The notes below the pieces were generated by a model, which ran no database searches, was not told where the DNA came from, and was given only the letters and a program-made list of their open reading frames with translations. Shown piece by piece: positions 13,501-59,935 of a stretch of 64,000 nt of DNA (the first letter of the stretch is position 1; each line of letters opens with the position of its first letter). The position numbers and the translations under genes are program-made. The stretch comes from Cyrtodaria siliqua (lineage: Eukaryota; Mollusca; Bivalvia; Adapedonta; Hiatellidae): NCBI GenBank assembly GCA_037043455.1, contig JAWPHD010000003.1:1054001-1118000 (forward strand), read 5' to 3'.

Positions 13501-16500
13501 TTGCACTATTCTGGAACTAGCTTCATTTAAAAGGGCTTTGAAAACCATGGACAAAGCTGAAAGAATTATCAAAATGTCGTAAAATATACAGGAGATGTGA
13601 TCTTTTAATTTCAAATGGAGCCAGCCATCTTGGATTGAGGACCTCATTGCACTTTTTTACCATTTATTGCATTGATTAATATAATTTAAAACAAAGAATA
13701 TCGCTGCAAATACATGTAAATCGTAAAAAGAGCGTATACAGTATAAATATTTTACTTTGCATTTATAATTTAATACATTTATTTGCTTTAAACACTATTA
13801 TCTATTTTCCATATATGGAAAAAGATGGCTGCCTCCATTGGAGTCATCTTGCACATTTGTAAAAGGTCATATCTCTTATATTTTTTTAAGGTATTTTGAT
13901 AATTTTTTCAGCCCTAAAGGGCTAAATTTCTGCAGTATCTGCTGTTAGTATGGAGTTATACCCGAGTGGTCAAAGCCTGGTGATAATGGTAGGGAGAATA
14001 CTGTTTGTTTATAGATTTATCTTGACACTGTAGCCATAAATAGCATTGGGCAAGGATTGTTTTTCATGGCTCAAAGTGGTCTGTTGTTTCAGATTAAATG
14101 TATTATGTAACTGATCCTTCAATAAACATTGGCCTGGGGAGGGGAAATTAATGGCTACTGATTAAAATGACAGTTACCAGTATACAGTTATTGAATGGCT
14201 TGCCGGTTAATAGTAAAACCATGGAAGGATCGTGAACTATAGCCCATTTCACCGGTACTTCGGAAATCTCCGTACAAAGTTCGGAATTTCAGTCACATGG
14301 CGCAAAGTCACATGACTTCAAGAACTAATCAGATGCTGGTAGTCATAACAGTATCAACACTCACAAATTAACTAGTTTCAGTCTTTATATATGCGTATTT
14401 GTTCGCTAAAACACCGCAGTCGTTAGTGCTATTCTACACAGAAGCCATCTTGACTCATTCCTTGGAAACTAGATCGGATTTCAAGGCTATACGAACACGC
14501 GTTGAATTGTTTACATTGGAGCATGTGCGCGTAAGTTGGAACCGGTGTGACGATAGAAATATTCATTGTTTTCTGACAATCCCGTTTTTTAATTGTATCA
14601 ACAAACACGCTTTACTTTTTGTTTTTCTACAGTGCCAAACACATTAATAACATATATTTGTCATGCGTTCAAGTTATAGTCTGACATTTAATAACATTTT
14701 TACATTGTTTTTAATTCACATTGGCACCGTTACAATGAATATTTAATGTGCCTACCAGCGTTTGATTGGTCGACCTAATTGGCTGCTCGGAGATAGCTCG
14801 TTATTATCCGTGATCTTTCGGCAAGTGTCGGGGTGAAATGGGCTATTGCCTAAGGCCGAAGGCAATAGTTTACATGATCCTTACATGCACTGAGGATAAA
14901 TAGTTCTACTATTGACTGCATGGCAAGTCATTCAATAACTGCTTTATTACATGATCACCTACATATACGCTGCAGTATATGCACCTGACTAAATTAGTAT
15001 ATTAATACCTGAAATAATGTATACTCAATGCAGTTGTAATGACCTGTGGTATTGATACCTGTCATTGTTCCAAGAAAGACGCACCACTCCATCCACCATG
15101 CATGCTTAATTAACATGCATTTATTCTAGCTGGTATGAAGTGAAGAAAGTGGCCTTGAAAAATGTAAAAGTCCTTGAATTTTTTCTTGGAATTTCTGTGT
15201 GAACCATGGGCAAGGTGGGAACATAGTCAAAAATATTAACTGATCATCTCTATAACAGATCTCAGCATTTTGAAATGGAAGTATTGCAATTGTGCCTCAG
15301 CATATTTTATGTTTTAGTTTCTTTAAATTTACATACTTGTACACGACATGGACTATACATCAAGCACAATATATATACATTTATTAATGCATAATGAGCT
15401 GTGGTAAATCAGATGAAGTTGTGGGTTCGATCCTCGCCGTGGCCTTGTAATTTATCCTTGAGCAAAATAATTAATCCACATTGCTTAGTACTGGTTCTAT
15501 TCAGGGGACCTTGTTTCACACTCAGTGCAAATAAATTTGTTTAAACTAACATGTGTTTCTATTAAAGGTTATGTTATTAATATTTGTTGTCATATTGTGA
15601 CAGACTGGAAAACACAAACTAAAAGGGTCTATTAGTTTTTAGCTCGACTGATCAGAGATCAGCAGAGCTTATGCCGTTGTGCGTCGTCCGTCCGTCTGTC
15701 TGTCCGTAAACTTTTATTTGTAGCGACTACTCCTCTGAAACTACTGGATGGATATTCATGAAACTTTACAGAAATGTTGCCCATGAAGTCTAGTTGATCC
15801 TAGCAAAAATTCATGTTGATGTGAAATCCAAGATGGTCACCAAAGCTAAAAATAGATTTTTAAAATACAAGTTTGTAGCGACTACTTCTTGAAAACTCTA
15901 TGTGATATTGATATGGGACTTTTTCTAAAATGATCAGCATGACACGATGTTGGTCCTTGTCGAAAATCGTTTTGATTCGGTGTAAACATGGCTGCCAGCG
16001 GCCATCTTTGTTTACATAGAGTTATATAATGAAAACTTGTAGCGACTACTCCTCTGAAACTACTTCACGGATTTTCATAAAACTTCACAGGAATATTGCT
16101 CTTGATGTCTAATTGATCCTAGCAAAATTTCAGGTCGGCCGGAAATTCAAGATGGCCGCCATGGCTAAAAATAGATTTTCAAAATACAAGTTTGTAGCAA
16201 CTACTTCTTGAAAACTATAAGGGTTATTGATATGGGACTTTTTCCAAAATGATCGGCATGACATGATGTTGGTCCTCGTCAAAAATCGTTTTGATTCGAT
16301 GTTAAACATGGCTGTCAGCGGCCATCTTTGTTTACATAGAGTTATATAATGAAAACTTGTAACGACTACTTCTCTGAAATTAATTGAAGGATTTTCATGA
16401 AACTTCACAGGAATGTTGCTCTTGATGTCTAATTGATCCTAGCAAAATTTCAGGTCGGCCAGAAATACAAGATGGCCGTCACGGCTAAATATAAATTTTC

Positions 16501-19500
16501 AAAAAACAAGTTTGTAGCGACTACTTCCTGAAATCAAAATCAATCAGTAGAGCTTAAAGGTCATTGACCTCTTGTTTCTATTCAAGGTTACATTATTAAT
16601 ATTTGTTTGTCGTATTGTAACAGACTAAAAAAACACAAACTAACCTATTATTTTGACTAAATAGCTGACGTGGATCACCCTTATGTTTGGGATTTAAGTG
16701 TATTGACAATTATTAAACAGTTTAAAATCATCTGTACCTCTATTGACGTCAAGTCTCTCCGAATAACCTTTTAACTAAAGTATACTCTTAAGGTTTATTC
16801 CACGAAAACATACATGGGACCCGAGGACGCACTCCTGTGATTGAACACCCATAGATGCAAAATTGAGTTTAGAGAAAAAAAATCAGTAAATAGAGTTCAT
16901 CCATAGATGTCTATTAAATTGCCTTCCTGGGTTCCCGAGTGTGTTTTTATGGAATAGCCGTTTCGTAATACATTTAAACAGTTTTACAAATTAATTGTTT
17001 TCTACAGGACCTTGATACAGGGAGACAAGATAGGAGGTTTCACAGTTTTCTGGGCTGATGACGGTCTGGACAAGGGCCCCATCTTGCTGCAAAAGAAAAC
17101 ATTTGTTGATCCCCAAGACACAGTGGATAGCATATACAACAGATTCCTCTACCCTGAGGGCGTCAAAGCTATGGTAAGGAATGAATTTAAAGCAGTCTTT
17201 AGCTAGACTGTTCAAAGAATAAGAGAACTTGTACTGTACCCTCAGCTTCTGTCATTTAAATTTACATCCTAGCTGACCTGAAATGACTTCTGCGTGATAT
17301 AAAATAGCACTTTGTTGGTGGGCTTCCTTTGAGGTTGCTCAGATACCTATTAATTTTCAGGTGTATCCTTCTCCTCTCTCTTGGGGGTCTCAAAATCAGC
17401 AAAATAATACGTGGATGAGCCAATCAGTTGCAACACTTCAATAGTGTTGTAAATGGGCAGCAGCGGACTGAAGTTTTCTTAAAACTACATTTGATTTGGA
17501 CCTTGTATGTTGATGGTTGTTTGAATGGTGTTTACATCATTTTTAGCACATGTTAGGTCATATATGACAGTCGATTTCTTTTTGTGGTAAAGGCAGACCA
17601 CCCCATTTTTCCTGGGTATAACAGTACTGTATGAATACCTCCAGCCATCCGTAAGAATCGACACTTTGTCACTTGGCAAGTTAAGCTTCTAGTGGGTTCA
17701 ATCCAGCAGTAGTGAGAGGCGAGAACATTTTAGATGCACGTTGAGACCTCCGAATGTGTTTGTGGTATTATGTTGCTAACATGAGCTTCTTCTTGAATCA
17801 CTTAAAGTTCAAACTTTCCATATGATTATCATATTATGAATGAAACTACATCTTAAGACACACTGGAGCTACTGCCATCTGACATAGGGCATACAGAAAT
17901 ATGTTTAGGTCAGACTTTTTTTTATTGTTTACCGATTTTTGAAGCAAAAATATAGGGTAGGAGGAGGTGGGGGCTGGGCGGTGTGGAAGAATGGTTGTGT
18001 TTTTTTGTTCGGAAAAATTCTATGAAATAATCGTCAAAGTAATATTGATTTGGGTGGTATAAAGTTATGTTGGAAAGCCTTTTTTTTTCTTCATTTTTGC
18101 CATATTTTCAGTCTAATAGAGTAGGAGGGTTGATAAGCCTAAAAATAAATAAATACTGGCCATTTGAATATTGATTATTTATATAAATATGCAAACAAAT
18201 GAATACACATTTTTGTTTTCAGGGTGAAGCAGTCCGGTTGATAGACCAGGGCATGGCACCTAAAATTATACAGCCAACAGAGGGCGCCACTTATGATGCA
18301 ATGTTGAAGAAAAGCAATGTGGTGGTGAGCACATTTTGCCTATCTGAGCTAGCAACCAGTAACTGGTCAAATGTGTGATCTGTTCAGATTAAGTTTTACA
18401 ACATTGGCCCATCTTCTGGCTATATTGTTACATCTGTATCTGTTTGTAAGGGAATTGATGGTGGGATCCTTCAGAAGGGGAAAAAATCGCATTGAAAACC
18501 TAAAATAAGGTGAACAAATTTATTGTTTATTTACCAAAAAAAACACAAAAACTGCATTGTGTTGCTAAGCAATCAGATGTGATGTTTTCCATGTTGTCAG
18601 AACAGGTAATATGTTTCAGGGATATATTATTCGTGATTATTTTATGACTTACTCACACTTTAAATGCTGCTGGAAAGGTATTAAAATATCAAGTTTAACT
18701 TAAACCTTCCGGAGAATAATTTTCCAACATTAAAGCAGAACTTGGTCTTAAATCAACAAATCCGCTTTTGATATGTTTTTAAGTATTAAATATCATTATA
18801 AATACGATTTTTACTATGCCATTGATGTATGTTCAGTGAAAATATGTTTTTAAAGATAAAAATCGAACAGACGAACAGGCATTGCTAAAATATCAAAAAA
18901 AATCTAAGGGGAAAAACTCTTGCGCGAATTACCGGAAGTGACGTCATTGGGAACAAACTATTTTTTGTTTACATTGGGACTGAACGTAAAACAGTATACC
19001 TTGTGTGAAAATGTGAGAATTAAGCGATCATGATACTGAGTCAGAGGAAAATTTAATGCCCGTGATAAGATGGCTACACAATGTGCAACCTTACGATTTT
19101 GAGCCAGAATACGTGTCTGAGGACGAAAATACATCGGATTCATCAACTGATGATGAAGTCGAACGCGGTGCAGGTGCAAATGGAGAGCTTGTAAAGACTA
19201 TCATGTCATGTCATTCGTTACATTCAGCGGTTCATTACACTATTCACTAATCTAACAAAATAGTGTATTTATACACTTACAGCAACAACAAACAAAAAAC
19301 AACGTAAACATTGTTTTCATCGAAATCTACAGTAAGTCACCCGCAACACTGCAATATCTTGGTACATACACAATAACCGCGAAATGTAGTATATTCCGAA
19401 TGAATGGACCTAGTCTAAATACGTGCGTCAGATTTTTTTGCCGATAAGTAGACATTGAACAAATATATTTATTAGATATTATCCATAATTGATAAAAAAT

Positions 19501-28500: not shown

Positions 28501-30964
28501 CAGTCAGTGACAATTAGCATGCACTGTTAAGACAGGGACTATCACAACCTGACTTCTATGGTGACGTGATTTACAAACTTCGTAAGATCCTTGGTCATGA
28601 TCACTTTCATGCTATCTTTGTTAAACTTGTTAAAAGGTTTATCAAAAGAGGTTATGACCCTATCATTTTGCAACTCACTGCTTGCTTGGTGATGGACCCC
28701 TTTACACTTTGCCACTATGCTTTCCTCTTTAATTGTGCGATGACCGGACAGGCTGTGGACTCTATGATGTCATCTACCTAAAGCCCAAAAGGACGGTGAC
28801 GTTTGATGTTTGTTGCAGTCTTGTCTTGTCGTGCCCTCAATGGTTTATTCTCTTGTTGCTTTGGCTTCTGCCAAGTCATTGAGTACCTTCTTTGTGGCTT
28901 TCTAGGATATTGTTATTTTGTATTTATTCAATATACGCGAGCATCTTTGTGTTTTACTTATATTGCCTATTAATGCTGCCTTGTTGGTTAGAGAATAGTT
29001 AGAGAATAGTTCATGGCGGGCATTTCTGTATTTACACTGTCCCGTTTTATTGGGATGGGAAGTGTGACGTTTGGTGCACACTAGAACCTTTAAACCCCAG
29101 TGGCCTTTTTTGCCACTGATCGCTCCAAGGTGGTAGCCATATTGTCAACCCTTTTGTGTTTGTGATGTCTTATTTGACCTTTTATTCATCTTTGCATCTG
29201 TGTTTGTTTATGGTTAACTGTCGTCCTTGAATGCTGCTTTTCCTGTTCGACTTCTATATTATCTTGTCTAAAGTAGGTGTCATACTGACCTTTTCTATCT
29301 AAAATCATGTTTATACTTCAAAAATGTATTAAATCATTACATATTATGAGTCTAATAACTAATAGTCTTATATGACTTGATTTGAGTTGCGTATATCTTG
29401 ACTATTGAGGTGAAATCCATTTCTACCAGTAAGGGATACCTACACACACACACAGAATACATACAAACAAGATAAACCTACAAACAAGAAATACCTACAA
29501 ACAAGGAATACATACAAACAACTAAAACTAAACTATTTTGTTCCAGGTTAAGATGAACAAGAACAACATGGATCTGACTATTCCATACCAGGCTTTCATT
29601 GACAACGAGTTTGTGGATGCCTCAAATGGAGCAACGTTTAAAACAATTAATCCAGCAAATGAAGAGGTAGGACTTGTTTTATTTATTTATAGGAACACAA
29701 TGAATGGTAAATGCTGACTTACTGTAATTGTATACAATTTAAATCATGACAGAATTATATTCTTTTATTTTACTGAAGAGTCGGGCACGGTTCCCGGATT
29801 CCTATGTCCCCTTCCCCTCTCTCTGGGGCGGCTCTAAATAACCTATACTGTGTTGATGAGCCATTAAACAACATTCAATTCAATTCAGTTAGTTTACTGC
29901 CACTAATGCTTTATAATAGTGTTTGAGATGGAATGTGAATTTTTTAAGAAAATATGTTTTGTAAGCATTATGATGTGACATTTTGTTTTAGGTGATTTGT
30001 GAGGTTGCCAAGGCCACAGTAGAAGATGTTAACCGTGCAGTGGAGGCAGCCAAGGTCTGTATTGTAGCAGGGTGATTACTTGTGTTCATATGAGCATGAT
30101 AAGCAGTATTGTTTTGTATGCATATGTCAGTGTTTTATAGTGGTATCCTGGAATGTCTTGTTACCCAAAATATCTATTTTCAGAAAATTCACATGAGTTG
30201 TACTGACTGTATGAATGAACAAACTGCAGAATGTTGAATATATTTTGCTTTAAAGTATAAAGAGTAACACATTTCAAACTGAAGTTTTTCCAGATTTTGA
30301 TAGACTTATAACAAAATACACAATTTTAAATATTATTTAAAGGGAAACAATTCAAACAGAATGTGTTGATTCAGTACGGCCATAGAAACCAATCATTTTC
30401 ATAGACAGCATTAAAACTCAAACTTGATATAACTGGGTTTTAAAAATTTGGAGATTGTGTAAGAAAATATGGGATGAACATGAAGATACAATTGTACATA
30501 TCTTTTACAGGGCAACATATTTGAGAATATTGTTAAAATGTGTACTATGTTTGTTTTTCATAGGCAGCATTTGAAGAAGGGCCCTGGGGAAAGATGAACG
30601 CAAGAGACAGAGGAAAACTGATGTACAGGTGTGTACTTATGTTAAACCATTTATGATTGATTTCTGAACAGGGCTGACACATAGGTTTGGTCTTGTAATG
30701 AAGCTTATGTATGTCATATTACCTGTTTGTTACTATTTTGAATAATGCAATAAATATATTAAGTTGCAGAAATTTAAGAAATGATACATCTAAACCTCTT
30801 TCTGAGGTACATACAAGTCTCAAACTTAATTCAGTTATATCCTACCATGTGGTATTTAAACAGAACAGTCAACATATTGAAGAAAAAACAGTCTGAAATG
30901 AGTTTAAATTTAACGTCATAATTCTCATACTTCTTTTGGATCACCTGCTGACCATGGTCATTTC

Positions 30965-30999
<35 letters not shown>

Positions 31000-33900
31000 C
31001 ACACACACACTACCCCACCCCATCCCTGTCAAACACACACCTCCCACCTTAACCCTCTGACCTCACCAACATATGTGATTGGGCATGACAAAAATAAAAT
31101 TTATATATGCTGGGTTTTGAATAATTTTGAGATTTTGTAAGAAATGGTATACTAATTTTCAGGAGGACCCATGCTGATTGCACCTGTTGTTTAAAACAGA
31201 TCACATAACCTCCTGACATTCCTTGCCATTATTTTCCTGTACAGAATTGTGACATTGCCATTATATTATGTTCCTATACAGAATTGTGACATTCCTTGCC
31301 CTTATTTTCCTATACAGAATTGTGACATTCCTTGCCATTATTTTCCTATACAGAATTGTGACATTTATTGCCATTATTTTCCTATACAGAATTGTGACAT
31401 GCATTGCCATTATTTTCCTACACAGAATTGTGACATTCCTTGCCATGATTTTCCTATACAGAATTGTGACATTCATTGCCATCATTTTCCTATACAGAAT
31501 GGTGACATTCATTGCCATCATTTTCCTATACAGAATGGTGACATTCATTGCCATTATATTCCTATACAGAATTGTGACATTCATTGCCATCATTTTCCTA
31601 TACAGAATTGTGACATTCATTGCCATTATTTTCCTATACAGAATGGTGACATTCATTGCCATCATTTTCCTATACAGAATTGTGACATTCATTGCCATTA
31701 TTTTCCATACAGAATTGTGACATTCATTGCCATTATTTTCCTATACAGAATTGTGACATTTATTGCCATTATTTTCCTAAACAGAATTGTGACATTCATT
31801 GCCATTATTTTTCTATACAGAATTGTGACATGCATTGCCATTATTTTCCTATACAGAATGGTGACATTCATTGCCATTATTTTCCTATACAGAATGGTGA
31901 CATTCATTGCCATCATTTTCCTATACAGAATTGTGACGTACATTGCCATCATTTTCCTATACAGAATGGTGACATTCATTGCCATCATTTTCCTATACAG
32001 AATTGTGACATTCATTGCCATTATTTTCCTATACAGAATTGTGACATTCATTGCCATCATTTTCCTATACAGAATTGTGACATTCATTGCCATTATTTTC
32101 CTATACAGAATGGTGACATTCATTGCCATTGTTTTCCTATACAGAATGGTGACATTCATTGCCATCATTTTCCTATACAGAATTGTGACATTCATTGCCA
32201 TCATTTTCCTATACAGAATTGTGACATTCATTGCCATCATTTTCCTATACAGAATTGTGACATTCATTGCCATCATTTTCCTATACAGAATTGTGACATT
32301 CATTGCCATCATTTTCCTATACAGAATGGTGACATTCATTGCCATCATTTTCCTATACAGAATGGTGACATTCATTGCCATCATTTTCCTATACAGAATC
32401 GTGACATTCATTGCCATCATTTTCCTATACAGAATTGTGACATTCATTGCCATCATTTTCCTATACAGAATTGTGACATTCATTGCCATCATTTTCCTAT
32501 ACAGAATTGTGACATTCATTGCCATCATTTTCCTATACAGAATGGTGACATTCATTGCCATCATTTTCCTATACAGAATGGTGACATTCATTGCCATCAT
32601 TTTCCTATGCAGAATGGTGACATTCATTGCCATCATTTTCCTATACAGAATTGTGACATTCATTGCCATTATTTTCCTATACAGAATTGTGACATTCATT
32701 GCCATCATTTTCCTATACAGAATTGTGACATTCATTGCCATCATTTTCCTATACAGAATTGTGACATTCATTGCCATTATTTTCCTATACAGAATTGCTG
32801 ACTTGATGGAGGAGCACAAGGAGGAACTCGCCTCGCTTGAGAGCCTCGATTCAGGGGCTGTCTACACCCTCGCGCTGAAGACACATGTGGGCATGTCCAT
32901 CGACACATTCCGGTACTTCGCTGGATGGTGTGACAAAATACAGGTGAGGTGCCTGAGATTTTGTTAAAATGCAGCATTCATATTTCAAGTGAATAATATG
33001 ATACAGGTATATAAACATGTCCGTATTGTTTAAGAGATTACTCTGACCCTAGGTAAATGATTTTGATTTCAGGTTACATATGTAAAATAAATATGTTTCT
33101 ATGATATCTAAAATTAGCATTTTGAAGTAAGGGCTATTCCATTTAAACATACCCACGATCCTGGGAAGGCAATTTAATAAACAGCTATGGGTGAATCCGA
33201 TTTTTTCGATTTTGTTTTCATTAAACTCAGTTTTGCATCTACAGGTGGCTGTTCAATTTCAAAAGTGCCTTCCTGGGATCCCATGAATGTTTTAATGGAA
33301 TAGCCCTAATGAAATGCTCTGAAAGATACATTTATTTAGGGCACACATTTCTTACACATTATTTGTCCAAAACAAATCTGTTACATTTTATTAAATTAAA
33401 TTTCTAAATATGGTAGATATATATTTTTAACCCATGATAATTCATAACATAATACATTTAAAAAGTTAAGGAAGATTTTAATTGTATTTACGTTGCATAA
33501 TACAGGGTAAGACCATACCAATAAACCACGCCACACCGAACAGAAACCTCACATTTACAAAGAGAGAACCTATTGGGTAAGTTATGATGTTTCTTTTGTA
33601 ACTAATTAACAAAGAAATATAGCAGACATCCCGACTGACAGTATTATCATATAGCACAATAGTGGTCTTAATGTGTCTTCCAAGATGACCCCTGCCGGTC
33701 ACATGATTTTAAACATGGTTTAATATTTTGATGACAACATTTTAGAGGCTACTTAAAACACTTCAAAAACACTTCTAACACAACTAGAATAAAAATGCAT
33801 TTTGGTTAACGCCTCTTCTTTACTACCGTTAACAAGGGCTGGCGTGGCGCAGTCGGTAGCGCGGCGGATTTGTAACCGGAGGCCCCGGGTTCAATCCTCC

Positions 33901-36900: not shown

Positions 36901-39900
36901 ATACTAAGTGTTGCGTTTTTAAATGTACTGATCATGAGTGTACAATTAACTCATCCTGTTTTGTAGCAGTTTTCAGTTTGTTTTAAACAGGTCCTTTCTG
37001 CTAGGTGTCTATATATAAATCAAGTTGTTTAAGAGAAGTGCATAGTATTTCTTATACCTTTTATTTTAGCTGTGCCAAGGTGAATGTGAAGAAGGTGTCG
37101 CTAGAGCTTGGCGGCAAGTCTCCCCTCATCATCTTCCACGACTGTGACCTTGATAAAGCTGTCAGAATGGTTGGTATATACTCTTCTTTATTAAAGGGAC
37201 TACAGGCGATCTGGACGAGTGATTGCTAGAGGCGATCTGGACAAGTGATTGCTAGAGGTGATCCGGACGAGTGATTGCTAGAGGCGATCTGGACGAGTGA
37301 TTGCTAGAGGCGATCTGGACGAGTGATTGCTAGAGGCGATCCCGACGAGTGATTGCTAGAGGCGATCTGGACGAGTGATTGCTAGAGGCGATCCGGACGA
37401 GTGATTGCTAGAGGCGATCCAGACGAGTGATTGCTAGAGGCGATCCGGACGAGTGATTGCTAGAGTGATCTGGACGAGTGATTGCTAGAGGCGATCCGGA
37501 TGAGTGATTGCTAGAGGCGATCCGGACGAGTGATTGCTAGAGACGATCCGGACGAGTGATTGGTGACAATCCAAAATTAAGTCAAAACCATCATAATGTG
37601 CTTCTGTTTCGTAGACATTAAATGAAGCTGCATGTTATTTTCAGTTTAAATATGTTTGGCCTTGAAAACTTGAAGACTTGGCGTGTTTTTGGTTTTAAAT
37701 CATAAATATTAATTCATATGGGTATCACATTGCTAGCCATTGTACATATAATTCAATATAAAAAGTGTAGGTTGATCACAAAACAAGAATTTATTATAGT
37801 CTAGAAACGTGATGTTTATTAATACTATTGATTTGTACAACAAAAACTAGCTGGGTCAAGTTTTCCTGACCTATTTCATTTATAACAATACTTAAATCGG
37901 ATGAATTGTTGGGCCTGGTTTTATAGTGCATTAGATCATTGAATGTGCAACTTGCTGATGCACAATATCGCATCCAGTCCCTTTCACACTTGAGTATGTT
38001 TATATTCTTGTGAGCAAGACCGTCAAACTCAGTCTTAAAATTGGAATATCTCACTTCTCTATAAAATATATGCTAACACTGAGAAAATTGAAAGTTTGTA
38101 CAAGTATTTGATGAAAGATTGTCTGAGGTTTTCTGATTTCAGACTTCAAGTTTCATGTTTTGACTCATCATATTATTATGTACCGGTATCTCATAATTAT
38201 GATTACGTGGCTGGATAGCACGGTGGACATAAAACCGAAGTGCCACTGAGTTTCGTATGTGTGTTCTTGAGCAAGACACTTTCTCTTAGCCTCGTCTGTC
38301 GAACGGGGATCTAAACAGGGTGGTCCTGGAGCCACTTCTCGGAGCAAATTAAAGAACCATAGGAATCTATCGGTTAATAAGAGTTTGGCAAGTTCCCAGA
38401 TTCCTATGTATTCTTTTCATTTCCTTTGGGGCTACTCTAAATAACCTCTAATGTGTTGATGAGCTGTTAAACAATATTCAGTTCATTTCACTGTTTAACC
38501 ATATAAACGTTATCTTTCCTAGAATGTATAAAACAGGGTACTGTCCCATTTATTATTGTTAACCTTACATTGTAGGCCTGTGGTGCTGTATTCTTCAACA
38601 AGGGAGAGAACTGTATTGCTGCAGGACGATTGTTTGTAGAGGACTCCGTACATGATGAATTCCTCAGACGAGTGGTAAGGCCACAAAAAATTATTTACCT
38701 GGTTCTCAGGCCACTTTTTCTGAGAAGAGATGCGGGCGGGCGCATTTTTTTTTACAATTTTACAGTGGTCAACAGACACGCGGGCGATTTGTAGCTCTAC
38801 CGATCAGAGATCAGCAGAGCTTATGCTGTGGTGCGGCGTCCGTCGTCCGTCTGTCCGTCTGTCTGTCCGTAAACTTTTTTTTGTAGCGAATACTCCTCTG
38901 AAACTACTGAATGGATTTTCATGAAACTTTACAGAAATGTTGCCCATGAAGTCTAGTTGATCCTAGCAAAAATTCATGTTGATGTGAAATCCAAGATGGC
39001 CGCCAGATCTAAAAATAGGTTTTTAAAAAACAAGTTTGTAGCGACTACTTCTTGAAAACTATAAGTGATATTGATATGGGACTTTTTCTAAAATGATCAG
39101 CATGACATGATGTTGGTCCTTGTCGAAAATCGTTTTGATTCGACGTTAAACATGGCTGCCAGCGGCCATCTTTGTTTACATAGAATTATATAATGAAAAC
39201 TTGTAGCGACTACTTCTCTGAAACTACTTGACGGATTTTCATGAAACTTCACAGGAATGTTGCTCTTGATGTCTTATTGATCCTAGCAAAATTTCAGGTC
39301 GGCCGGAAATTCAAGATGGCCGCCACGGCTAAAAATAAATTTTCAAAATACAAGTTTGTAGCGACTACTTCTTGAAACTATAAGTGATATTGATATGGGA
39401 CTTTTTCTAAAATGATCAACATGACATGATGTTGGTCCTTGTCAAAAATTGTTTTGATTCAACGTTAAACATGGCTGCCAGCAGCCATCTTTGTTTACAT
39501 AAGAGTTATATAGTAAAAACTTGTAGCGACTACTCCTTTGAAACTACTTGGCGGATTTTCATGAAACTTTACAGGAATGTTGCTCTTAATGTCTAATTGA
39601 TCCAAGCAAAATTTCAGATTGGCCAGAAATTCAAGATGGCCGCCAAAATAGATTTTTAAAAAAAAAGTTTGTAGCGACTACGTCTTGAAAACTATAAGTG
39701 ATATTGATATGGGACTTTTTGTAAAATGATCAGCATGACATGATGGTTATCAGAGTCAAACATTATTTTGATTCGACGTTAAATATGGCTGCCAGTGGCC
39801 ATCTTCGTTTACATAGAGTTATATGATGAAAACTTGTAGCGACTACTCCTCTGAAACCACTTGACGGATTTTCATGAAACTTCACAGGAATGTTGCTCTT

Positions 39901-42900
39901 GATGTCTAATTGATCCTAGCAAAATTTCAGTTCGGCCGGAAATTCAAGATGGCTGCCATGGCTAAAAATAGATTTTCAAAATACAAGTTTGTAGCGACTA
40001 CTTCTTGAAAACTATAAGTGATATTGATATGGGACTTTTTCTAAAATGATCAGCATGACATGATGTTAGTCCTTGTCAAAAATCGTTTTGATGCGATGTT
40101 AAACATGGCTGTCAGTGGCCAACTTTGTTTACATAGAGTTATATAATGAAAACTTGTAGCGACTATTCCTCTGAAACTACTTAACGGATTTTCATGAAAC
40201 TTCACAGGAATGTTGCTCTTGATGTCTAATTGATCCTAGCAAAATTTCAGGTCGGCCGGAAATTCAAGATGGCCGCCACGGCTAAAAATAATTTTTCAAA
40301 AAACAAGTCTGTAGCGACTACTTCCTGAAATCAAAATCAATCAGTAGAGCTTCAAGGTCATTGACCTCTTGTTTTTTTATCCAAACTTAATTCCAATACA
40401 TGTATTGATGCAAAATATCTCGAAATACATGGGTCAGCTCATCTCTATTGTCGATCATTACCTTATCAATTCTTCCCGACTTATGCTTCTTTCAATCACA
40501 ATAAGTCTGTATATTTGTATTAGATCACACATGAACTATTGCATGTTGTTGTGAGACTTTATCGATTAGACGCTTGAGTAAATCGCCTGTTCTGTAGCAC
40601 CTACTAGTTCCAAGCGTCTCAAGCGTCTGTCTCCTAGATTGGAACCCGTACGAATGCAACACTCACAAGCTAGCGAGCAAGTCGGCCGCGCACCAGTCTA
40701 CCCACAAGGGGATTCCCCTGAGGTAGTTGCATGTAAAAACCAGAACGAACTTGGATGCGGAACTTTTTTTTCGAAATTTCGGTAGCGCATTTCCAATTTT
40801 TAGCTCTACTGATCAGAGATCAGCTTATGCCGTGGTGCGGCGTCCGTCGTCTGTCTGTCCGTCCGTCTGTCCGTCCGTTAACTTTTTTTTTGTAGCGACT
40901 ACTCCTCTGAAACTACTGAATAGATTTTCATGAAACTTTACAGAAATGTTGCCCATGAAGTCTAGTTGATCCTAGCAAAAATTCATGTAGATGTGAAATC
41001 CAAGATGGCCGCCAAATCTAAAAATAGGTTTTTAAAAAACAAGTTTGTAGCGACTACTTCTTGAAAACTCTAAGGGATATTGCTATGGGACTTTTTCTAA
41101 AATGATCAGCATGACATGATGTTGGTCCTTGTCGAAAATCGTTTTGATTCGACGTTAAACATGGCTGCCAGCGGCCATCTTTGTTTACATAGAGTTATAT
41201 AATGAAAACTTGTAGCGACTACTCCTCTGAAACTACTGACGGATTTTCATGAAACTTCACAGGAATGTTGCTCTTGATGTCTAATTAATCCTAGCAAAAT
41301 TTCAGGTCGGCCGGAAATTCAAGATGGCCGCCACGGCTAAAAATAGATTTTTAAAAAATAAGTTTGTAGCGACCACTTCTTGAAAACTATAAGAGATATT
41401 GATATGGGACTTTTTCTAAAATGATCAGCATGACATGATGTTGGTCCTTGTCGAAAATCGTTTTGATTCGACGTTAAACATGGCTGCCAGTGGCCATCTT
41501 TGTTTACATAGAGTTATATAATGAAAACTTGTAGCGACTACTCCTCTGAAACTACTTGACGGATTTTCATGAAACTTCACAGGAATGTTGCTCTTGATGT
41601 CTAATTGATCCTAGCAAAATTTCAGGTTGGCCGGTAATTCAAGATGGCCGCCACGGCTAAAAATAGATTTTTAAAAAATAAGTTTGTAGCGACTACTTCT
41701 TGAAAACTATAAGAGATATTGATTTGGGACTTTTTCTAAAATTATCAGCATGACATGATGGTTATCCGAGTCGAACATTATTTTGATTCGACGTTAAACA
41801 TGGCTGCCAGTGGCCATCTTTGTTTACATAGAGTTATATAATGATAACTTGTAGCGACTACTCCTCTGAAAATACCTGACGGATTTTCATGAAACTTCAC
41901 ACGAATGTTGCTCTTGATGTCTTATTGATCCTTGCAAAATTTCAGGTCGGCCGGAAATTCAAGATGGCCGCCATGGCTAAAAATAGATTTTCAAAATACA
42001 AGTTTGTAGCGACTACTTCTTGAAAACTATAAGTGATATTGATATGGGACTTTTTCTAAAATGATCAGCATGACATGATGGTTATTCAAGTCGAACATTA
42101 TTTTGATTCGACGTTAAACATGGCTGCCAGTGGCCATGTATGTTTACATAAGAGTTATATAATGATAACTTGTAGCGACTACTCCTCTGAAACTACTTGA
42201 CGGATTTTCATGAAACTTCACACGAATGTTGCTCTTGATGTCTAATTGATCTTAGCAAAATTTCAGGTCGGCCGGAAATTCAAGATGGCCGCCATGGCTA
42301 AAAATAGATTTTTAAAAAATAAGTTTGTAGCGACTACTTCTTGAAAACTATAAGAGATATTGATATGGGACTTTTTCTAAAATGATCAGCATGCGTGATG
42401 GTTATCCGAGTCGAACATTATTTTGATTCAATGTTAAACATGGCTGTCAGTGGCAATCTTTGTTTACATAGAGTTATATAATGAAAACTTGTAGCGACTA
42501 CTCCTCTGAAACTACTTGACGGATTTTCATGAAACTTCACAGGAATGTTGCTCTTGATGTCTAATTGATCCTAGCAAAATTTCAGGTCGGCCGGAAATTC
42601 AAGATGGCCACCAAGATGGCCAAACTGATTTTCAAAAAAACAGTTTGTAGCGACTACTTCCTGAAATCAAAATCAATCAGTAGAGCTTCAAGGTCATTGA
42701 CCTCTTGTTTAATTATTATTTTTTTGTTGGTTTTGTTTGGAGTTTTTTTTTTTTTAATTTTTTTTTTTTTTTTTGTAAATATTTTTTTTTTTTTTATTTT
42801 TTTTTTTTTTTTAAAAAAAAATAATTTTTTTTTATTTGATTGATTTGAATTATTATTTTTTTAAAAAAAAAATTCATTATCTTTTTAATTACTTGACACT

Positions 42901-57610: not shown

Positions 57611-57872
57611 TGTTATATACATGTAGGAAAAACTTGCCATCACAATTTACTTTTAACTACTGACTGGATGTTCATGAATTTCACAGTAACAGTATAGGTA
57701 ATATCTAGTTTGTCGAAACGAAATTTAACTACCAGTGAAATCCAAGATGACCACCAAGTCTGAAAAGACAAGAGAGATTGATACGAGACCTTTGCCAAAG
57801 TAGTCTGCATGGCATGTTCCAAAATGGCATACCGTTTGATCAGACCAGAGTATGGTTGGTGTCTATCCAAAT

Positions 57873-58965
57873 ACACATGTATTACACATGTACAGTACAC
57901 ATGTATTACACATGTACAGTACACATGTATTACACATGTACAGTACACATGTATTACACATGTATTACACATGTATTACACATGTATTACACATTTACAG
58001 TACACATTTATTACACATGTACAGTACACATGTATGGTACACATGCATAACACATGTATTACACATGTACAGTACACATTATTACACATGTACGGTACAC
58101 ATGTATTACACATGTATGGTACACATGTATTACACATGTATGGTACATATGTATTGCACATGTATAGTACACATGTATTACACATGTATAGTACACATGT
58201 ATTACACATGTATGGTACACATGTATTACACATGTACAGTACACATGTATTACACATGTACAGTACACCTGTATTATGCATGTACAGTACACATGTACAG
58301 TACATATGTATTATGCATGTACAGTACACATGTATTACACATGTACAGTACACATGTACAGTACACATGTATTATGCATGTACAGTACACATGTATTACA
58401 CATGTACAGAACACATGTATTACACATGTACAGTACACATGTATTACACATATACAGTACACATGTATTACACATTTATTACACATGAACAGTACACATG
58501 TATGGTACACATGTATTACACATGTACAGTACACATGTATGGTACACATGTATTACACATGTACGGTACACATGTATTACACATTTATTACACATGAACA
58601 GTACACATGTATGGTACACATGTATTACACATGTACAGTACACATGTATTACACATGTATGGTACACATGTATTACACATGTACGGTACACGTATAGTAC
58701 ACATGTATTACACATGTATGGTACATATATACAGTACACATGTATTACACATGTACAGTACACATGTATTACACATGTACAATACACATGTATTATGTAT
58801 GTACAGTACACATGTATTACACATGTACAGTACACATGTAGTACACATGTACAGTACATATGTATTATGCATGTACAGTACACATGTATTACACATGTAC
58901 AGTACACATGTATTACACATGTACAGTACACATGTAGTACACATGTACAGTACATGTGTATTACA
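57873..58965. repeat. ACATGT-rich satellite, part 1
   Basis: Composed of ACACATGTATT and ACACATGTACAGT modules with TATGGT and TACGGT variants. ACATGT, TGTACA and GTAC palindromes recur every 11-13 bp. Both strands stay open, so many 70-280-codon frames result; none is a gene. Confidence 0.95.
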
Positions 58966-59456
58966 CAGGGTTCTCAATAACTTTTGGTTGAACAGGCTTT
59001 TTGAAAAAGTAACAGGCCTATGCGCGGGGGGTGCGGGAGTCCTGCTCCGGAAAATTTTGAAATTGAGCGCGTCATTTCCTGCATTTTGGGCTATTTTGAA
59101 TGCCTTTTAAATCACACTTTAAAGTGCAATTTTATAAGCAATATTCCTCTATATGCAGATACAAGTACTGCAGTGCAGTAGTTGTATCTGTATTTATAGG
59201 TAGTGCAGTATGTTGACAATTATATTTATTTACCAAACTTCAACAACACATATCCATTCTAAAAATGTATTCTGAACACCACATATCCACATAACTACAA
59301 AATTCAACAACAAATACTTTCCATTATCTCTACAAAGTTCAATAACACATACTATGCGTGTCACTGTCCTCATATTTTTTTTATTATTTTTTTTGAACTG
59401 CCCAAATGCCATTTGAAGCGGTCATTTCGGCCGGCCGGTTCTTATTGAGAACCCTG
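58966..59456. mobile_element. MITE, CAGGGTTCTCAATAA ends (copy 2), inside the satellite
   Basis: Same ends and interior as 2508-2960. ATTACA directly precedes and follows it, a 6-bp target duplication of satellite sequence. It therefore jumped into an existing ACATGT array. Confidence 0.95.
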
Positions 59457-59935
59457 ATTACACATGTACAGTGCACATGTTCATTACACATGTATTACAC
59501 ATGTACAGTACACATGTATTACACATGTAAGTACAGATGTATTACACATGTACAGTACACATGTATGACACATGTACAGTAAACATGTATTAAACATGTA
59601 CAGTAAACATGTATTACACAACATTTACAGTACACATGTATTACACATTCACAGTACACATGTAGTACACATGTATAAATATGTACAGTACACATGTATT
59701 ACACATGTACAGTACACATGTATAAAATATGTAGAGTACACATGTATTACACATGTACAGTACACATGTAAGTACACATGTATTACACATGTACAGTACA
59801 CATGTATTACACATGTACAGTACACATGTATCAAATATGTACAGTACACATGTATTACACATGTAAAGTACACAGGTATTACTCATGTACAGTACACAGG
59901 TATTACTCATGTACAGTACACATGTATTAAATTCA
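59457..59935. repeat. ACATGT-rich satellite, part 2
   Basis: Continuation of the array after the MITE, with more degenerate modules (ATAAATATGTACAG, TAAGTACAC). Open frames are repeat translations. Confidence 0.93.

What the first reader, a model, noticed from the sequence alone, without database searches (positions are those of the whole stretch)
31213..32802. Minisatellite made of 43 copies of a gene's own splice acceptor, most of them in frame
Each 36-bp unit carries TTTTCCTATACAG, identical to the acceptor of ALDH1L exon 12, plus a near copy of the first exon bases (AATTGTGAC against AATTGCTGAC). The array abuts the exon. Decoy AGs lie 36 bp apart at 31244 to 32756. The unit has no stop on this strand and is 12 codons long, so any of the last 30 decoys would splice in frame and add n copies of a hydrophobic [12 protein letters not shown] repeat between residues 489 and 490; the 13 decoys before the 35-bp unit (acceptor at 31712) lead to a stop. 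The array could tune splicing efficiency, create a ladder of isoforms, or act as a splice-site sink, and its length is likely polymorphic.
Basis: partly seen in the sequence, partly recalled or inferred. Interest (0 to 1): 0.88.

Follow-up and report, generated by a model that had tools for sequence, protein, structure and literature searches.

The report
Tandem array of a gene's splice acceptor
In a clam-like animal, a folate enzyme gene carries 43 extra copies of one of its own splice sites in front of an exon; such arrays are known from a few other animals, and this one probably arose by chance duplication and is mostly ignored by splicing, but it makes a useful natural test of how cells choose a splice site.

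Summary
The array is real: 44.1 copies of a 36-bp unit at 31214-32802, running through the exon 12 acceptor of a bivalve ALDH1L gene, with 43 decoy acceptors plus the true one. Two details are corrected. One gap is 37 and one 35, so the first decoy (31244) is also in frame: 31 decoys read through and 12, not 13, reach a stop. Eight of 43 decoys differ from the exact acceptor word. Each unit carries a candidate branch site, pyrimidine tract and CAG; the true site ranks 25th of 44 on a small local matrix. A direct repeat, CTGAC, at both ends suggests a 37-bp seed duplication. The open frame is no evidence of coding: 8 of 18 other acceptors would pass the same test, and 240 of 240 listed homologues lack an insertion. 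The kind is known: amphioxus "mirage" minisatellites and, on the donor side, the human ABCA7 VNTR. Most likely exon definition selects the terminal acceptor, with minor +36n isoforms. No RNA could be examined.

The parts
31214..32802 (+). 36-bp minisatellite, 44.1 copies, consensus (acceptor-phased) AATTGTGACATTCATTGCCATCATTTTCCTATACAG
   Evidence: TRF; units and consensus of 41 units
31213..31217 (+). CTGAC at the 5' edge of the array: left copy of the direct repeat that probably bounded the seed duplication, and the only CTRAY-type branch-site match in the 44 units
32798..32802 (+). CTGAC inside exon 12 at the 3' edge of the array: right copy of the direct repeat
31243..31244 (+). decoy acceptor 1; in frame and open through the whole array (590-codon stop-free stretch 31195-32967)
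31280..31677 (+). decoy acceptors 2-13; out of frame, all reach the same stop just after the 35-bp unit
31711..32756 (+). decoy acceptors 14-43 (30 sites); in frame, each adds n x 12 residues of an [16 protein letters not shown] repeat
32791..32792 (+). true acceptor AG of exon 12, of the same kind as the decoys (rank 25 of 44, ten sites tied at its value, on a position weight matrix from 18 other acceptors of this gene)
32793..32943 (+). ALDH1L exon 12, 151 nt, 53.6% GC; donor GTGAGG at 32944
32808..32814 (+). purine run GGAGGAG, candidate exonic splicing enhancer (candidate by composition only)
32818..32826 (+). purine run AAGGAGGAA, candidate exonic splicing enhancer; no purine-only hexamer with two or more G in the array
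30564..30628 (+). ALDH1L exon 11; donor GTGTGT at 30629, phase such that AG|A makes Arg at the junction
31161..31162 (+). best-scoring AG between 30650 and 31213, i.e. before the array (TACTAATTTTCAG, score 6.84); in the phase of exon 11 it leads to a stop after 15 codons

Best explanation
A splice-site ('mirage'-type) minisatellite. A segment running from about -32 in intron 11 to about +5 in exon 12 was tandemly duplicated between two CTGAC words (inferred from the boundaries), became a 36-bp unit, and spread by unequal exchange or slippage to 44 units (inferred from block structure and the divergence gradient). Every unit is a complete candidate 3' splice site: TGAC about 29 nt upstream, a pyrimidine tract, CAG. 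Local signals hardly tell most of the 44 apart. The terminal acceptor is probably chosen because splicing of this exon is exon-defined: flanking introns of 2164 and 562 nt, a 151-nt GC-rich exon with purine-rich candidate enhancers 16-34 nt from the terminal site and a consensus-like donor. The nearest decoys should be used at a low level (+36, +72 nt) and the far ones hardly at all. The array is then largely neutral; its in-frame, 12-codon unit is a coincidence that may make rare mis-splicing less harmful.
For: Array and units. Shared signals; 36 of 44 sites score within 0.6 bit of the true one (rounded values; range 1.8 to 8.0). Direct repeat CTGAC at both edges, 37 bp apart in the empty-site model, such a repeat in 0 of 18 other acceptors. 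Turnover: left-hand units more diverged (r = -0.50, permutation p = 0.0007; 41 units, the edge unit 1 and the 37- and 35-bp units left out) and similarity at lag 7 (nominal p = 0.0015, one of 24 lags; 43 units). Exon-definition setting (intron and exon lengths, GC 53.6% against 33.6%, 6 purine-rich hexamers in exon 12 against 0 in the 1574 array hexamers). The last four units fold less well than shuffles (z +1.8), so no structure is seen that would hide decoys. Homologues join the two residues without insertion, 240 of 240 listed. [quoted passage not shown] the two frameshift isoforms of ABCA7 made 14 +/- 6 and 2 +/- 1% of transcripts, the second of which I take to be retention of one VNTR unit (PMC5954066, passages); exon-centric proximity rule (PMC9225289, abstract, passages and section 9).
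Against: No RNA evidence at all. In PMC9225289 equal-strength 3' sites flanked by two long introns show a significantly reduced upstream preference, not a stated reversal, so use of upstream decoys could be larger than supposed. In ABCA7 a different cryptic site (14%) and exon skipping (12-45% by tissue) were not rare. The seed model needs the loss of one C (37 to 36) and rests on one 5-bp match. The splice matrix comes from only 18 sites, which scored 0.7 to 14.4 when left out, and 4.4% of 1309 other intronic AGs score at least as high as the true exon 12 site. The homologue test says nothing about minor isoforms in this species, which does not appear among the listed proteins (best match 88%).
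Confidence: 0.74

Rival explanations
1. The array generates a functional ladder of ALDH1L isoforms with n x 12 hydrophobic residues between R489 and residue 490.
For: 30 decoys (14-43) are in frame with repeat-type inserts, and decoy 1 is also open; most decoys are as strong as the true site on a local matrix.
Against: Insertion would fall inside a predicted helix (residues 480-496 of the Ruditapes orthologue, ten-residue blocks at pLDDT 78 and 85; model overall mediocre, mean 73.9, pTM 0.55) of a strongly conserved domain; the unit has a mean Kyte-Doolittle value of about 2.2 (my arithmetic with recalled values, no call); no insertion in 240 of 240 listed homologues; no clear sign of coding constraint; open frame expected by chance about half the time.
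Confidence: 0.07
2. The array works as a splice-site sink: 44 pyrimidine tracts compete for U2AF/U2 and lower inclusion of exon 12 (151 nt, so skipping shifts the frame), with array length tuning gene output.
For: ABCA7 VNTR length correlates with skipping of the next exon and negatively with expression (PMC5954066, passages); exon 12 length is not a multiple of 3; the four units folded are unstructured.
Against: Amphioxus mirages are reported to leave regular splicing intact; no length variation or expression data here; nothing shows regulation rather than leak. In ABCA7 the VNTR is on the donor side and other explanations are offered there.
Confidence: 0.13
3. Assembly artefact: a short real duplication inflated to 44 copies.
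For: Tandem arrays are hard to assemble; the authors of PMC3087553 say that one B. floridae mirage appears aberrantly assembled in its draft genome (supplementary legend passage).
Against: 41 units differ by 16 kinds of single-base variant, with one 35- and one 37-bp unit besides, in a graded pattern, unlike a repeated assembly loop; such errors usually shorten arrays (general knowledge).
Confidence: 0.06

Closest known systems
'Mirage' minisatellites of amphioxus (Adh3, globins BflGb6/BflGb9, TnC, PGBD5)
   Same: Minisatellite-like tandem repeats spanning an intron-exon boundary, with splice signals in many copies; BflGb6 duplicates the 3' end of an intron plus the 5' part of the exon, as here
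   Different: Bivalve host; 44 units against 6 and 3 in the two BflGb6 haplotypes; every unit an acceptor; unit a multiple of 3 and open in the exon's frame. Length instability and regular splicing are reported there, not known here.
Human ABCA7 intron 18 VNTR
   Same: A 25-bp minisatellite that begins at and includes a genuine splice site; use of a repeat copy retains one unit
   Different: Donor side, out-of-frame unit, known polymorphism (about 12 to 427 units) and disease association.
Potato RdRp intron gain by tandem duplication across an intron-exon boundary
   Same: Duplicated segment spans the 3' end of an intron and the start of the next exon and carries branch site, pyrimidine tract and acceptor
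   Different: A single duplication that made a new intron; here no strong new donor (AGGT 0 times in the array) and no new intron is evident.

Membership tests
Mirage-type (splice-boundary) minisatellite | tandem minisatellite that spans an intron-exon boundary | tested here: met
   array 31214-32802 crosses the exon 12 acceptor at 32792/32793
Mirage-type (splice-boundary) minisatellite | copies carry the splice signal | tested here: met
   CAG in 44 of 44 units; 35 of 43 decoys identical over -13..+3
Mirage-type (splice-boundary) minisatellite | homogenised interior with deviant edge units (reported for BflGb6, not strictly defining) | tested here: inconclusive
   left-hand units are diverged and the last third homogeneous, p = 0.0007, but the right edge unit 44 differs from the consensus at only one, common, position
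Mirage-type (splice-boundary) minisatellite | length instability between alleles | not testable with these tools
   one sequence only; own-genome search did not complete
Mirage-type (splice-boundary) minisatellite | regular mRNA splicing kept | not testable with these tools
   no RNA; 240 of 240 listed homologous proteins lack an insertion, which is indirect
NAGNAG-type tandem acceptor | competing AGs within about 9 nt, sharing one branch site | tested here: not met
   spacing 35-37 nt, own branch-like motif per unit
Rogers-type intron gain by tandem duplication | AGGT or a donor in the duplicate giving a new intron | tested here: not met
   AGGT 0, GGTAAG 0, GGTGAG 0 in the array; 13 weak GGTGAC only
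Coding tandem repeat (alternative exon) | purifying selection on the reading frame | tested here: inconclusive
   5 silent and 6 changing variant types in units 15-44 against 31:75 possible; too few to decide

The most novel reading that the evidence does not exclude
A length-variable array of in-frame acceptors that the animal really uses: a ladder of ALDH1L isoforms or a copy-number-dependent dial on exon 12 inclusion, differing between individuals and tissues.
Probability: 0.12. Interest if true: 0.75.

Novelty: new member of a known kind. Interest (0 to 1): 0.45.

Why it matters
It is a natural experiment on 3' splice-site choice: 44 mostly near-equal acceptors, 36 nt apart, before one exon. 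The two proximity rules point to opposite ends of the array (exon-centric: 32793, or +36/+72; intron-centric: 31245 or 31282), so ordinary RNA reads can decide. Eight paper searches brought up the kind in amphioxus and, on the donor side, in human ABCA7. The one search that named bivalves returned 0 papers. They cover only an open-licence library and few word choices, so this does not show that no bivalve case is in print.

Tried and rejected
Coding meaning of the open frame: not supported after three controls. RNA structure hiding decoys: the last four units and a 110-nt stretch across the true acceptor fold less well than shuffles (z +1.8 and +1.6); the whole array was not folded. Copies of the unit elsewhere in the window: best other match is 13 bp, E 0.077, so the array is local, not a dispersed repeat of this window. 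Proteins with the repeat: of the 120 listed among 147 hits none covers more than 29% of the query (7998 candidates of limited length scored). A first regular-expression test of the junction in homologues missed 151 of 240 and was replaced by alignment of all 240. Whether the array occurs elsewhere in the genome could not be asked (tool did not complete). Further mirages in this gene: 1 of 19 acceptors lies in an array; the 17-bp repeat ends 26 nt before exon 9 and the 26-bp repeat begins about 30 nt after the exon 16 donor, so neither reaches a boundary; donors were not tested systematically. Lag-7 periodicity is weak after allowing for 24 lags. Papers opened but little used: PMC4039745 (abstract: a C. 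elegans minisatellite enriched near alternatively spliced regions) and PMC2812944 (passages: minisatellites altering human gene structure, sometimes by cryptic splice sites).

Full report
WHAT IS THERE. A single 36-bp minisatellite lies at 31214-32802 (44.1 copies, 95% matches). It runs through the 3' end of intron 11 and 10 bases into exon 12 of an ALDH1L (10-formyltetrahydrofolate dehydrogenase) gene on the + strand. Exon 12 matches ALDH1L structures (7yjj, E 8.6e-24). The protein read from the window is closest to bivalves: Ruditapes philippinarum 88%, Mactra antiquata 87%, Dreissena polymorpha 86%, Mya arenaria 84%. The species itself was not identified.

CHECK OF THE CLAIMS. The array holds 44 CAG acceptors, 43 decoys and the true one. 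Gaps are 36 except one 37 and one 35. So 31 of 43 decoys are open in frame, and 12 of 43 reach a stop. The word TTTTCCTATACAG followed by AAT is found at 35 of 43 decoys, and the whole -20..+3 window is the same at 9 of 43. The acceptor identity is not a coincidence to be explained: the true acceptor is the last unit of the array.

SPLICE SIGNALS. With a matrix from 18 other acceptors of this gene (leave-one-out scores 0.7 to 14.4, mean 7.06) the true exon 12 site scores 6.37 and is 25th of 44, with 10 sites, itself included, tied at that value. The 44 range from 1.8 to 8.0, and 36 lie within 0.6 of the true site (rounded values). The 19 AGs between 30650 and the array average -3.1, the best being 31162 at 6.84, which leads to a stop. 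The matrix is weak: 4.4% of 1309 AGs in other introns score at least as high as the true site. A TGAC word lies 28-30 nt before the exon start in 43 of 44 units by pattern and in the remaining one as CGTGAC (listing). A looser branch motif lies at -23 in 35 units. So a model using local sequence alone would call dozens of near-equal acceptors. The last four units are less structured than shuffles (z +1.8).

ORIGIN. The word CTGAC occurs at the left edge (31213-31217) and, in the exon, at the right edge (32798-32802). In the empty-site model the two are 37 bp apart; 0 of 18 other acceptors show a 5-bp direct repeat in such a place. I infer a duplication between them, with loss of one base to give 36. 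Left-hand units are the most diverged: mean differences from consensus 1.64 (units 3-13), 1.54 (15-27) and 0.53 (28-44), r = -0.50, permutation p = 0.0007; units 1, 2 and 14 were left out as edge or odd-length. Unit order, 43 units, shows similarity at lag 7 (nominal p = 0.0015) and lag 1 (p = 0.0055), weaker at lags 6 and 13, out of 24 lags tried. This fits tandem turnover with recent growth or homogenisation near the exon.

IS THE OPEN FRAME MEANINGFUL? There is no sign of it. A shuffled unit is open in a given frame 49% of the time. If the same -31..+5 segment were duplicated at the 18 other acceptors, 8 would be open in frame. Of 11 variant types in units 15-44, 5 are silent, 6 change a residue and none is a stop, against 31, 75 and 2 of 108 possible changes; the silent share is a little high but the events are few. 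All 240 homologues listed by two searches (the best 120 of 7983 and the best 120 of 1846) join the two residues with no insertion. In a predicted model of the Ruditapes orthologue the junction R489|L490 lies inside helix 480-496 (ten-residue blocks at pLDDT 78 and 85; overall 73.9, pTM 0.55), so an insert of 12n hydrophobic residues should disturb the fold (inference).

IS THE PLACE MEANINGFUL? Arrays cover 24.6% of the window. Random placement, overlaps allowed, of the 19 arrays within 1-54000 puts 3.7 of 19 acceptors in an array on average and at least one in 98% of trials; one is seen, and one or fewer occurs in 11%.

MECHANISM. The exon setting favours the terminal site: exon 12 is 151 nt and 53.6% GC, the array 33.6% GC, introns 2164 and 562 nt; exon 12 has six purine-rich hexamers, all in its first 34 nt, and the array none. 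Carranza and others (PMC9225289; abstract, passages and section 9 seen) report that sites closest across the exon are favoured when both introns exceed 250 nt. For 3' sites in that class they report that the upstream preference is significantly reduced, without stating a reversal; this weakens the prediction. With n extra units the exon would be 187, 223, 259 nt and so on, so only the nearest decoys give exons of ordinary size. I therefore expect mostly 32793, with a few percent at 32757 and 32721. The measured parallel is ABCA7, where the two frameshift isoforms made 14 +/- 6 and 2 +/- 1% of transcripts, the second of which I take to be retention of one VNTR unit; that retention did not change with VNTR length, while skipping of the next exon rose with it (PMC5954066, passages). 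Shown here: the anatomy, the near-equality of signals, the controls. Inferred: the seed event, site choice, neutrality.

KNOWN KIND. Amphioxus 'mirages' are tandem repeats across an exon-intron boundary; BflGb6 has the acceptor-side form with 6 and 3 units in two haplotypes, and Adh3 data and globin RT-PCR suggest that regular splicing is kept (PMC3087553, section 16 read). PGBD5, Adh and TnC cases are mentioned in PMC3902484 (one passage). The original Adh report (Canestro 2002) is not held and is cited through these. Potato RdRp shows how such a duplication can become an intron (PMC4974935, abstract and results section read). This locus meets the anatomical definition; polymorphism and splicing could not be tested.

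LIMITS. No RNA, no second genotype, no mollusc DNA to compare, and the own-genome search did not complete (nine tries). Exons were read by eye and the last coding one was not found.

VERDICT. A genuine and striking example, with many more acceptor copies than the one acceptor-side case whose copy number I read (6 and 3 units in BflGb6), but a new member of a known kind, with a mainly neutral reading favoured.

Noticed in passing
32793-32796: The first complete codon of exon 12 is ATT (Ile) where 236 of 240 listed homologues have Leu (2 Ile, 1 Met, 1 Val). It lies in the five exon bases that the repeat unit shares, so array-exon sequence exchange may have changed it; not testable without relatives' DNA.
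   Followed up: partly
31213-32792, 13 units with AATGGTGAC: A T-to-G variant in 13 units makes ATG|GTGACA, a weak donor-like word a few bases after an acceptor; a possible step to intron gain, nothing more.
   Followed up: no
37200-37562: A 26-bp minisatellite (14 copies) begins about 30 bp after the exon 16 donor; it does not include the splice site.
   Followed up: partly
15718-16533, 38881-40330, 40890-42666: The same 319-320-bp satellite unit (TTGTAGCGACTACTCC...) occurs as three separate arrays in introns of this gene.
   Followed up: no
57872-58967 and 59474-59929: Two arrays of a 24-bp unit containing the palindrome ACATGT.
   Followed up: no
30966-30997: Run of 32 C bases in intron 11, about 220 bp before the array.
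   Followed up: no
31150-31162: TACTAATTTTCAG just before the array is the best-scoring AG between 30650 and the array, with a branch-like TACTAAT; it leads to a stop after 15 codons, a possible poison acceptor.
   Followed up: partly
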